Shown: piece by piece, positions 1-1,976 of the stretch
Layout: each line of letters begins with the position of its first letter
Numbering within the stretch: the first letter of the stretch is position 1
Origin: Candidatus Altimarinota bacterium
Lineage (GTDB): Bacteria > Patescibacteriota > Gracilibacteria > UM-FILTER-43-11
DNA length: 64,000 bases
Reading direction: 5' to 3'
Assembly (NCBI GenBank): GCA_028281045.1
Contig: JANQKP010000001.1
Location: 62,001 to 126,000, forward strand
Made by a program: the position numbers and the translations under genes
Notes under the pieces: generated by a model
Told to the model about the DNA's origin: nothing
Database searches by the model: none
What the model saw: the letters and a program-made list of their open reading frames with translations, nothing else

Positions 1-519
1 TACGAAAAGCTCAACAAAGAGCTAGAGCTTTATAGTAAAAATCTTTCTAAAAAACCACAGCTACTCGTATTTAATAAATTAGATAGCTCTATTGAAGAGC
101 TCAACGAAGAAATTCAAAAAGAGTTTAAAAAAGAGAAGCCTCTATTTATTTCAGCCGTAACCGGGGAGGGAATAGATGAATTTTTATACAAACTTAAAGA
201 TGAGGTCATTAAACTCCGTAAAAAAGAAGCCGTGGCTAAGCCAAAAGAAGCCAAAGAAAGAAAAGTCTTTAGACCGCATTTAGAAAAACAAGACACGCGT
301 AACTACACCATAGAAAAAGAAGGAGATGGATTCCGTATTAAAGGAAAACGTATAGAGCAGATTGCCATCATGACTGATATGACCCGGCGTGGAGCCATCG
401 TGCGTGTGCATGATGTACTTTCTAAAATTGGAGCTCAGAAACAAATGAAATCTATGGGCGCCCAAGAAGGGGATCCAATTTACATTGGAGAACGTAAATT
501 TGAATTCAGAGATATCTAG
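1..519 (+). CDS. obg: GTPase Obg/CgtA, C-terminal part (5' end outside window)
   Basis: Only the last 172 residues are present, reading in frame from base 1. The piece opens inside the G domain: NKLD (G4, residues 25-28) and SAVTGEG (G5, from residue 51) are visible, followed by a Lys/Glu-rich linker. From about residue 95 the OCT domain typical of Obg follows (FRPHL, then IEKEGDGFRIKGKRIEQ and MTRRGAIVRVHDVL). Obg is a ribosome-associated GTPase that acts in 50S assembly and stress control. The stop TAG shares the tetramer CTAG with the stop of the convergent arginine gene. Confidence 0.93.
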   Translation, partial: YEKLNKELELYSKNLSKKPQLLVFNKLDSSIEELNEEIQKEFKKEKPLFISAVTGEGIDEFLYKLKDEVIKLRKKEAVAKPKEAKERKVFRPHLEKQDTRNYTIEKEGDGFRIKGKRIEQIAIMTDMTRRGAIVRVHDVLSKIGAQKQMKSMGAQEGDPIYIGERKFEFRDI

Positions 520-1778
520 TGGCCTTGATAGGTATAGACCACTTTACCTTGAGGGATACCTCCATAGTCTTTAATGAATCCAGGCATATCTGCATGGCCC
601 ACCATTTCTTGAAGTGGTCCTTCTAGCTTAAAGCCGGCTTTATCGAATGAACTAGCGGCTCCATCCACCTTGGTCACAAGGCCAATCTTCTGACTCAGGG
701 CATTGGCATGGGCTTTTGCATTTTCTAAGATCATTCTTCCGTAGCCATTAGACTTTGGCCCTGCCCAATACATGCCAAGCTCAGTCCACTGATGGGCTCT
801 TGGAATAAGAGAAACTCCTCCTAGCATAGAATTTTTCACCTTCATTAAGTGATGATAGGTGATGGCTTCTTCAATTTCTTTAGGACCTCTTTGTCTAAAT
901 GGTCCTTTGGCTTGCATAAGGTCTGCAAATACGGCTTCAATAATAGGAATTTCCTCAGGTTTCACCATAGGGTGCTCGTGTTTAAACAGATCAATCACCA
1001 TCGTTCCATATCCTTTCCAGCCTAGAAGCTCTTCTCTCAAGTATCCACCGCCAAGGGCAACCCCTTTGCTGGCTTTTGGAATTACTTCCATCATAAGATT
1101 GGCTTTATTCACCATGCCACCTTGGATGGTTCCATCGTCTATTAATGGGGCTAGTTCTTCTAGGGTGAGTACAGGGAATATATTTTTGTCTTTATCCCAA
1201 ATCCCATTGGAATCACTGAGCATCACAAGCTCATTGATTCTTCCATGGGCACTTAAAATCGCTTTCATCATGTGATCTGCATTCACATTCACAAAGCCAT
1301 TCTCTGCTTGTCCGATGAATTGGTAGACGCTGAGCATGTGACTAGGATCAAATTGGTCAATGTAAACCGGTTCACCCACAAAGCCATGAGCGCCTGCATC
1401 TAAGTAACCACACTTAATGGTTGCAGGATCTTGAAAATGTATAGGCACTGAAGCAAATAAGTCGGCCAGATAAGCACGGATTTCTTTGGCTGCAGGAATA
1501 AGGGCCTGATCAATGGCTTTTTTCTCGGTATAGCGAATGCCACCCGTTTTTTTAATAGATAACTTCTTATCTTCGTAATGTTTATCAATAATAGGTCCTC
1601 CACCCACATTTAAAATGAATTTAATCCCATATCTCATGAGTTCCATCATGGTTTCGGCATCGCGCTGAAACTCTGGGGTGTTTAAGACAGATCCACTCAC
1701 TCTAAGTAAGATGGTTTTTCCAGCATACAAATCAATGTAGGCCTCTTCCTGTGGTGTGTAGTGGGGGGAACTTTGCAT
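516..1778 (-). CDS. Bifunctional N-acetylglutamate synthase/kinase (amino acid kinase + GNAT)
   Basis: 420 residues. The first about 280 residues are an amino acid kinase domain of the acetylglutamate kinase type, with LRVSGSVL at 25-32 and NVGGGP at 57-62. The last about 130 residues look like an N-acetyltransferase domain, with the acetyl-CoA loop NGYGRMILENA and upstream ELGMYW. This order matches NAGS-K fusions, which make and then phosphorylate N-acetylglutamate, the first two steps of arginine (ornithine) synthesis. No other arginine gene is in the window. The ATG at 1776-1778 has no Shine-Dalgarno sequence and lies about 20 bases past the U-tract of an attenuator whose leader peptide is rich in Arg codons. 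That arrangement independently supports an arginine role. Confidence 0.82.
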   Translation of the reverse strand: MQSSPHYTPQEEAYIDLYAGKTILLRVSGSVLNTPEFQRDAETMMELMRYGIKFILNVGGGPIIDKHYEDKKLSIKKTGGIRYTEKKAIDQALIPAAKEIRAYLADLFASVPIHFQDPATIKCGYLDAGAHGFVGEPVYIDQFDPSHMLSVYQFIGQAENGFVNVNADHMMKAILSAHGRINELVMLSDSNGIWDKDKNIFPVLTLEELAPLIDDGTIQGGMVNKANLMMEVIPKASKGVALGGGYLREELLGWKGYGTMVIDLFKHEHPMVKPEEIPIIEAVFADLMQAKGPFRQRGPKEIEEAITYHHLMKVKNSMLGGVSLIPRAHQWTELGMYWAGPKSNGYGRMILENAKAHANALSQKIGLVTKVDGAASSFDKAGFKLEGPLQEMVGHADMPGFIKDYGGIPQGKVVYTYQGH

Positions 1779-1798: not shown

Positions 1799-1830
1799 AA
1801 AAAAAGCTCTGTCCAGTGCATGGATCAGAG
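1799..1830 (-). terminator. Intrinsic terminator of the arginine attenuator
   Basis: On the minus strand CTCTG-A-TCCA (1830-1821) pairs with TGGA-CAGAG (1815-1807) around the loop TGCAC. After one base there are seven U (1805-1799). It lies between the leader peptide and the acetylglutamate synthase/kinase start codon, so it should end transcription early when arginine is sufficient. Confidence 0.8.
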
Positions 1831-1888
1831 ACTTTGTTTCAGTTAACTTAAACTAACGCCATTTCTGACCACATGCAGAAATACGGCG
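1799..1888 (-). promoter_or_regulatory. Arginine transcription attenuator (hairpins 1:2, 2:3, 3:4)
   Basis: Reading the minus strand, segment 1 (1888-1876, overlapping the Arg codons) pairs with segment 2 (1867-1857): CGCC/GGCG and ATTTCTG/CAGAAAT with a two-base bulge. Segment 2 (1876-1864) can instead pair with segment 3 (1829-1818): GCATG/CATGC and GGTCAGA/TCTGATC, with one G-U pair and one bulged base. Segment 3 also forms the terminator stem with segment 4: CTCTG/CAGAG and TCCA/TGGA. A ribosome stalled at the Arg codons would mask segment 1, free segment 2 to pair with 3, and allow read-through. Confidence 0.82.
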
Positions 1889-1927
1889 ACGACGAGCTCC
1901 TGTGTTGATCAGTGAAATGAAGTTCAT
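1853..1927 (-). CDS. Arginine-rich leader peptide of the attenuator
   Basis: A 24-residue ORF, ATG at 1927 and TAG at 1855, encoding MNFISLINTGA-RRRR-ISACGQKWR. The four central Arg codons are CGT CGT CGC CGT (1894-1883), and a fifth Arg codon directly precedes the stop. It sits between a promoter and a terminator hairpin, upstream of the acetylglutamate synthase/kinase gene. This is the arrangement of leader peptides that sense charged tRNA(Arg) by ribosome stalling. The peptide itself probably has no function. I judge it real because the codon run, the hairpin alternatives and the downstream gene all agree. Confidence 0.82.
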   Translation of the reverse strand: MNFISLINTGARRRRISACGQKWR

Positions 1928-1947: not shown

Positions 1948-1976
1948 ACTTTACCTTATATATAAAGGTAAGTCAA
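1948..1976 (-). promoter_or_regulatory. Promoter of the arginine leader, with an inverted repeat in the spacer
   Basis: Minus-strand -35 TTGACT (1976-1971), a 17-base spacer and -10 TAAAGT (1953-1948), about 20 bases before the leader ATG. The spacer holds an inverted repeat TACCTT-(7)-AAGGTA (1952-1970) that could bind a repressor or activator shared with the divergent pth gene. It does not resemble the classical ARG box. Confidence 0.5.

What the first reader, a model, noticed from the sequence alone, without database searches (positions are those of the whole stretch)
1799..1927. Complete arginine transcription attenuator in a Patescibacteria-like genome
Seen directly: a 24-codon leader ORF with Arg codons CGT CGT CGC CGT, followed by four segments. 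Segment 1:2 is a stable hairpin overlapping the Arg codons, 2:3 is a 12-bp alternative with one G-U pair and one bulge, and 3:4 is a terminator with seven U. The gene behind it is an acetylglutamate synthase/kinase, the entry to arginine synthesis. The geometry fits the classic His/Trp logic: stalling frees segment 2, while complete translation leads to termination. I know of arginine control mainly by ArgR, and of no described ribosome-mediated arginine attenuator in this group.
Basis: partly seen in the sequence, partly recalled or inferred. Interest (0 to 1): 0.92.

Follow-up and report, generated by a model that had tools for sequence, protein, structure and literature searches.

The report
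Arginine-sensing gene switch in Gracilibacteria relatives
A tiny gene rich in arginine codons, followed by two competing RNA hairpins, appears to let this uncultured bacterium switch on an arginine-pathway-like enzyme gene when charged arginine tRNA runs short; the same switch recurs before the equivalent gene and before true arginine-synthesis genes in many related bacteria, a use of this classic mechanism that I could not find described.

Summary
On the minus strand, a 24-codon leader ORF (1927-1853; CGT CGT CGC CGT) is followed by an overlapping 1:2 hairpin, a 12-bp 2:3 antiterminator and a 3:4 terminator with seven U, 20 bases before an N-acetylglutamate synthase/kinase-like gene (1778-516). 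Relatives settle it. Arg-run leaders precede the same gene in 19 genomes of 15 genera of this class, with little sequence shared between distant ones. An Arg run occurs upstream of 23 of 30 homologues but only 1 of 22 pyrB-like genes. The 2:3 complementarity beats shuffles (Fisher p 6e-21, 18 representatives). Such leaders also precede genuine arginine operons (argC-argF, argG-argF, argF-argG, argG-argH). None of 20 genomes has ArgR. One correction: the window's own genome has no argC, argF, argG or argH over cut-off, so the gene cannot be 'the entry to arginine synthesis' there; its function is open. I conclude that this is an arginine-specific ribosome-mediated transcription attenuator: a known mechanism with an apparently undescribed specificity and lineage. 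Expression evidence is lacking. In code-25 relatives the gene additionally seems to need a +1 frameshift at CCC_AGA, possibly a second arginine sensor.

The parts
1948..1976 (-). promoter-like site TTGACT-17-TAAAGT, placing a start about 10-20 nt before the leader ATG
   Evidence: Consensus scan only, 9 of 12 matches, at the chance level for this region; inferred.
1853..1927 (-). leader ORF, 24 codons, MNFISLINTGARRRRISACGQKWR
   Evidence: Arg-run leader ORFs at similar distance precede the homologous gene in 19 genomes.
1883..1894 (-). sensor codons CGT CGT CGC CGT (Arg x4)
   Evidence: Sequence. Arg runs in upstream ORFs of 23 of 30 homologues against 1 of 22 pyrB-like genes.
1857..1888 (-). 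1:2 hairpin: CGCC(gt)ATTTCTG / CAGAAATGGCG, overlapping the last Arg codons of the run
   Evidence: Sequence; dG -11.6 for the region, p 0.19 alone; combined over 18 representatives p 6e-9.
1864..1876 (-). segment 2 of the antiterminator (GCATGTGGTCAGA)
   Evidence: Pairs with 1829-1818; no shuffle as good, p 0.001; compensatory changes in the equivalent helix of six relatives.
1818..1829 (-). segment 3 of the antiterminator (TCTGATCCATGC), shared with the 5' arm and loop of the terminator
1799..1830 (-). 3:4 intrinsic terminator, stem 1830-1807 with 5-nt loop, seven U 1805-1799
   Evidence: Sequence; part of the MFE fold; best U-tailed hairpin -13.7 kcal/mol with the A/U extension.
516..1778 (-). 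regulated gene, 420 aa: amino-acid kinase domain plus C-terminal GNAT-type domain, NAGS/K-like
   Evidence: PF00696 and TIGR00761 hits, the latter below the curated argB cut-off; model pLDDT 90, best PDB folds NAGS 2r8v/3d2p and NAGS/K 3s6g, 3s6k.

Best explanation
It is an arginine-specific, ribosome-mediated transcription attenuator. RNA polymerase starts a few bases before the leader ORF and a ribosome follows it. When charged Arg-tRNA is plentiful, the ribosome reads the four Arg codons, reaches the UAG stop and covers segment 2; segment 3 then pairs with 4 and transcription ends in the U run. When Arg-tRNA is scarce, the ribosome stalls on the Arg codons, holding segment 1; segment 2 pairs with 3, the terminator cannot form and the NAGS/K-like gene is transcribed. 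Shown by sequence and comparison: the parts, their order, the Arg specificity, and conserved competing pairings. Inferred: real termination, real stalling, the promoter, and the response to arginine. What the enzyme does in a genome without the arginine pathway is unknown; my guess is a repurposed acyl-amino-acid kinase/acetyltransferase used in arginine limitation.
For: Anatomy complete and exact. Arg-run leader plus downstream hairpin before the homologous gene in 19 genomes, 15 genera, families f1, f5, f11, f14. Codons switch from CGN to AGA in AT-rich code-25 genomes while the amino acid stays Arg. Same-genome control: 23 of 30 upstreams against 1 of 22 pyrB-like ones. 2:3 complementarity against shuffles: Fisher p 6e-21 over 18 representatives. 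Two G-C/A-U compensations in the 2:3 helix of six relatives, 89.7% cells paired against 36-69% when slid. The leader also precedes genuine arg operons: argG-argF in G117 (L060), argC-argF in G330 (L090), argF-argG in G190 (L135), argG-argH-NAGS/K in G234 (L140). No ArgR in 20 genomes, while 9 of 14 control genomes ring. A crude ribosome-footprint model drops 2:3 pairing from 0.72 (stall) to 0.24 (stop) here, and by more than 0.2 in 15 of 24 leaders.
Against: No RNA or reporter data. None of the window's same-family relatives keeps the gene, so the window's own leader has no close alignment. With the full terminator present, the equilibrium fold of this leader favours 3:4 in both states, so the switch needs co-transcriptional order. 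About 9 of 24 leaders do not switch in the crude model. Several 'b' leaders have poor U tracts (L011b, L013b, L035b). The arginine pathway is missing in the window's genome.
Confidence: 0.88

Rival explanations
1. Nascent-peptide arrest: the ribosome stalls because a basic/hydrophobic leader peptide acts in the exit tunnel (as in speFL-type arrest peptides) and reports something other than Arg-tRNA charging; the RNA switch is otherwise the same.
For: Poly-Arg stretches slow ribosomes in general (background knowledge); many leaders share a hydrophobic start and, within family f5, a tail like SSEVTA.
Against: Leader peptides of distant families share little except the Arg run. The tail conservation can follow from the RNA helix that it encodes. 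True arg operons carry the same leaders, and T-boxes, a tRNA-charging sensor, replace the leader before the same genes in f34.
Confidence: 0.06
2. Arg-responsive but translational attenuation: the alternative hairpins control start-site access or mRNA stability rather than transcription termination.
For: Some relatives have conserved 3:4 stems without a good U tract (L011b, L013b, L035b, L036b).
Against: The window has a textbook terminator with seven U ending 20 nt before the start codon; most relatives have T5-T9 runs.
Confidence: 0.05
3. Chance: an ordinary terminator or 5'UTR with an Arg-rich spurious ORF.
For: RRR occurs in about 1% of short ORFs (10 of 1191 in the window); whole-leader folding energy is not exceptional (z -1.41); the 1:2 hairpin alone has p 0.19.
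Against: Recurrence in 15 genera, the same-genome control and the 2:3 statistics make chance negligible for the family.
Confidence: 0.01

Closest known systems
Classical amino-acid leader-peptide attenuators (trp, his, leu, thr, phe; Yanofsky type)
   Same: Leader ORF with a run of the regulating codon, 1:2 / 2:3 / 3:4 helices, intrinsic terminator, biosynthetic-type gene behind (sequence).
   Different: Arginine is the sensed amino acid. PMC2965389 and PMC1262725 report such attenuators in Proteobacteria, Actinobacteria and some Firmicutes; I found no arginine case in the passages read. Here the host group is the class that holds Candidatus Gracilibacteria, and several relatives carry two attenuators in series.
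orf34/speFL leader of speF, Salmonella (PMC6386406)
   Same: Bacterial leader ORF in which two consecutive Arg codons sense arginine.
   Different: Acts through Rho and RNase G on an ornithine decarboxylase gene; no intrinsic-terminator switch and not an arginine-synthesis type gene.
rbfL, Staphylococcus aureus (PMC13009471)
   Same: Short leader whose Arg codons sense arginine limitation.
   Different: Pausing blocks the ribosome site of a biofilm regulator and lowers expression; here stalling should raise transcription.
T-box riboswitch (RF00230)
   Same: Senses tRNA charging by terminator/antiterminator choice; found before the NAGS/K gene in G330 (47 bits, E 2e-9, below the gathering score) and, by the conserved box only, before argF in G331.
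   Different: No leader ORF; a different sensor on the same kind of gene in family f34.
Arginine attenuator peptide of fungal arg-2/CPA1
   Same: Arginine-dependent upstream ORF before an arginine-pathway gene (from memory; the term recurs in papers listed).
   Different: Eukaryotic, nascent-peptide arrest by high arginine, translational; no RNA hairpin switch.

Membership tests
Ribosome-mediated transcription attenuator (leader-peptide type) | short leader ORF with a run of codons for the regulating amino acid | tested here: met
   Window; 19 genomes; control.
Ribosome-mediated transcription attenuator (leader-peptide type) | intrinsic terminator between leader and first gene | tested here: met
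   Stem 1830-1807 plus seven U.
Ribosome-mediated transcription attenuator (leader-peptide type) | antiterminator helix (2:3) exclusive with the terminator, conserved across relatives | tested here: met
   p 0.001 here; 6e-21 combined; compensatory pairs.
Ribosome-mediated transcription attenuator (leader-peptide type) | 1:2 hairpin overlapping the control codons | tested here: met
   11 bp, 1888-1857; not more stable than shuffles here (p 0.19) but so for the set (p 6e-9).
Ribosome-mediated transcription attenuator (leader-peptide type) | regulated gene belongs to metabolism of the sensed amino acid | tested here: inconclusive
   NAGS/K-like fold and true arg operons in relatives, but no argC, argF, argG, argH in this genome.
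Ribosome-mediated transcription attenuator (leader-peptide type) | expression rises on limitation of charged tRNA | not testable with these tools
   No expression data.
T-box riboswitch | Stem I and T-box sequence matching RF00230 | tested here: not met
   No Rfam match at the window leader.
N-acetylglutamate kinase (ArgB, TIGR00761) | score over curated cut-off | tested here: not met
   68.7 against 151.3 bits; a divergent homologue.
NAGS/K-type two-domain protein | amino-acid kinase domain plus C-terminal GNAT domain | tested here: met
   AlphaFold model pLDDT 90; 2r8v, 3d2p, 3s6g and 3s6k among the best folds over the full length.

The most novel reading that the evidence does not exclude
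The class controls these genes with layered arginine sensors. Besides single or tandem leader attenuators, the code-25 Gracilibacteria members (family f14) would need a programmed +1 ribosomal frameshift at CCC_AGA, a few codons into the gene (0-frame MEDVPR*, MEKLPR*, MKELPR*, MKEILPR...). Slow decoding of the AGA arginine codon would favour the shift and so production of the enzyme in arginine starvation: a natural hungry-codon frameshift used as a nutrient sensor, for which the 2016 review PMC5009743 says no examples are known.
Probability: 0.4. Interest if true: 0.88.

Novelty: new member of a known kind. Interest (0 to 1): 0.74.

Why it matters
Arginine is the textbook case of repressor (ArgR) control; I found no description of a leader-peptide transcription attenuator for arginine genes in the library searched. 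A class-wide set in ArgR-less, probably host-dependent bacteria shows that ribosome-coupled attenuation extends to the Patescibacteria and gives a testable regulatory circuit for organisms with few genetic tools. It also flags an orphan NAGS/K-like protein that stays under arginine control after the arginine pathway is lost, which asks what the protein now does.

Tried and rejected
(1) Close relatives: the protein and the leader DNA have no match in the window's own family, and scans of genome contigs and viral contigs with the window protein found nothing. The comparison therefore rests on more distant class members.
(2) A first pass over upstream regions used unoriented minus-strand loci; redone oriented.
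(4) Phylum-wide search: outside the class I looked at five kinase-type homologues and saw no Arg-run leader with a terminator.
(5) Formal pair counting on the 'a' leaders (A4) was dropped because segment 3 misaligns. The automatic terminator choice was wrong for L035b and doubtful for L007 and L011a.
(6) Equilibrium folding with ribosome footprints does not by itself reproduce the switch for the window; folding without segment 4 does.
(7) An AGA-run pattern search in AT-rich genomes gave two hits, neither a leader I could recognise.
(8) The window genome's carbamoyltransferase (C2:60253-61128) is taken as PyrB, since it scores below the argF cut-off and the next gene reads like PyrC.

Full report
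WHAT IS THERE. On the minus strand of 1976-1778 there is a complete leader-peptide attenuator. Reading 5' to 3': ATG at 1927; MNFISLINTGARRRRISACGQKWR; Arg codons CGT CGT CGC CGT at 1894-1883; stop TAG at 1855-1853; 11-bp 1:2 hairpin 1888-1857; 12-bp 2:3 helix 1876-1864 with 1829-1818; terminator stem 1830-1807 and seven U at 1805-1799; gene start at 1778. A promoter-like TTGACT-17-TAAAGT lies at 1976-1948, but such matches are at chance level here. No Rfam family matches the leader.

IS IT MORE THAN CHANCE AT THIS LOCUS? Of 1191 short ORFs in the window, 10 contain RRR and only this one is followed by T6 or longer within 90 nt. The 2:3 complementarity is beaten by none of 1000 dinucleotide shuffles; the 1:2 hairpin on its own is ordinary, p 0.19. 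Whole-leader folding is only mildly better than shuffles, z -1.41. The single locus is suggestive; the relatives decide.

RELATIVES. The gene product is found in 45 of 353 genomes of the class, but in no other genome of the window's family. Upstream of the gene I found an ORF with an Arg run and a hairpin behind it in 19 genomes of 15 genera, the window's own included. Examples: MILALSLSLRRRPASGGMSA (L007), MQINLIGPMARRRTSSEVTI (L040), MKFLIHQIISRRRTSSEVTG (L038), MINLLLNRRIRTLRLRTVRKR (L003), MKNIIINIRRRLCENFS (L025). Two more, L042 and L043, are degenerate. In AT-rich, TGA-recoded genomes (GenBank titles: Candidatus Gracilibacteria for three of four) the codons are AGA, elsewhere CGN, so the amino acid and not the DNA word is kept. 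Counting uORFs with at least three of one residue in four: Arg runs occur upstream of 23 of 30 homologues and of 1 of 22 pyrB-like genes from the same genomes.

PAIRING. For each leader I took the stretch behind the Arg run and the 5' half of the terminator and compared their duplex energy with dinucleotide shuffles: Fisher p 6e-21 over 18 representatives, 4e-29 over all 26. The helices differ in sequence between genera, for example GAATTTCTCA/TGAGAAATTC (L025) and GAAAATAG/CTATTTTC (L015). In six related 'b' leaders the 2:3 helix keeps 89.7% of cells paired (36-69% when slid), with two positions changed on both sides, G-C to A-U; those are probably few independent events. A footprint model without segment 4 gives 2:3 pairing 0.72 with the ribosome stalled and 0.24 with it at the stop codon for the window, and the expected direction by more than 0.2 in 15 of 24 leaders. 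With the full terminator at equilibrium the window's leader does not switch, so co-transcriptional order is needed, as in the classical cases.

TRUE ARGININE GENES. The same device stands before bona fide arg operons: G117 argG-argF, MTNLFTTSLRRRPFSKGKWLLLLCK (L060); G330 argC-argF, MHSYANFLNRRRTTALLRRLRRRS (L090); G190 argF-argG (L135); G234 argG-argH-NAGS/K (L140). In G330 the NAGS/K gene has a T-box instead (RF00230, 47 bits, E 2e-9, below the gathering score), and a T-box-like sequence precedes argF in G331: two tRNA-charging sensors used on the same genes. ArgR (TIGR01529) is absent from all 20 genomes tested and found in 9 of 14 controls.

TANDEM ARRANGEMENT. In G190, G220, G221, G223, G227, G234, G240, G242 and G243 two Arg-run leaders stand in series (a then b), in most cases each with its own competing helices. 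Inference: two attenuators in series would sharpen or deepen the response.

THE REGULATED GENE. 420 aa, kinase domain (PF00696) plus a C-terminal domain; weak to argB (68.7 bits against a cut-off of 151.3). The AlphaFold model (pLDDT 90) matches N. gonorrhoeae NAGS and the bifunctional NAGS/K structures along its length. Residues matching E. coli NAGK N158, D162 and K217 (residue numbers from memory) are kept in the alignment; K8 is Arg in the window protein, and R66 is kept in the window protein but is Gly or Ala in several orthologues. argC, argF, argG and argH are below cut-off in the window's genome (96% complete), and argC, argF and argG are below cut-off in 17 of 27 gene-bearing genomes. 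So the arginine-controlled gene usually stands without the pathway.

LITERATURE. The Genome Biology survey PMC2965389 contains no mention of arginine, and the Actinobacteria survey PMC1262725 describes no arginine attenuator in the passages read. Known bacterial Arg-codon leaders are orf34 of speF (PMC6386406) and rbfL (PMC13009471); both act by other means on other genes. Searches for an arginine leader attenuator in bacteria or in Patescibacteria found none. Subscription papers are not covered, so absence is not proof.

A SECOND POSSIBLE ARGININE SENSOR IN RELATIVES. In the four code-25 genomes the only conserved ATG of the NAGS/K gene is in the wrong frame: ATG GAA AAA TTA CCC AGA TAG (L018), ATG AAA GAA TTA CCC AGA TAG (L022), ATG GAA GAT GTT CCC AGA TAA (L015), ATG AAA GAA ATA TTA CCC AGA AGC (L025). 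The protein continues one base later as CCA GAT/GAA. L022 and L025 have no ATG, GTG or TTG in the main frame before the conserved domain. CCC followed by a slow Arg codon would suit a +1 shift driven by arginine shortage. PMC5009743 states that no starvation-specific use of hungry-codon frameshifting is known. Four sequences from one family, no data: a lead.

VERDICT. A new arginine-specific member of a known mechanism, well supported by comparison, untested by experiment.

Noticed in passing
L015, L018, L022, L025 at the gene start (family f14, code 25): The NAGS/K gene appears to need a +1 frameshift at CCC_AGA shortly after the ATG in all four genomes (0-frame MEDVPR*, MEKLPR*, MKELPR*, MKEILPRSKGKT*); the A-site codon is Arg..
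   Followed up: partly
L011, L012, L013, L035, L036, L038, L135, L139, L140: Two Arg-run leaders with competing helices stand in series before one gene (tandem attenuators)..
   Followed up: partly
L009 1247-1422; L091 upstream of argF: T-box leaders (RF00230 47 bits in L009; T-box sequence only in L091) replace the Arg leader before NAGS/K and argF in family f34..
   Followed up: partly
L153 (G208:C39:6259-6342 minus): A Val-run leader MLLNLVTVVVVVVPQG followed by a hairpin (CCCGCGCTAAGCGGG) and T6 precedes a 135-aa protein of unknown kind: probably another amino-acid attenuator in this class..
   Followed up: no
L034, L040, L041, L042, L043, L046: The gene erodes in some relatives: kinase part degenerate (L040, L041, L046), GNAT only (L034) or kinase only (L042, L043), while L040, L041 and L046 keep the Arg leader..
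   Followed up: partly
window 516-1778 minus strand, alignment A1: The position matching NAGK R66 (GLRVT; numbering from memory) is Gly or Ala in several orthologues, and K8 is Arg in the window protein, so the substrate may not be N-acetylglutamate..
   Followed up: no
L139 (G221:C33:263-361 minus): Tandem Arg leaders stand before a gene cut by the contig end (MQCPPPKEIPTATAETPALPPSPIPAMIDDI...), identity unknown..
   Followed up: no
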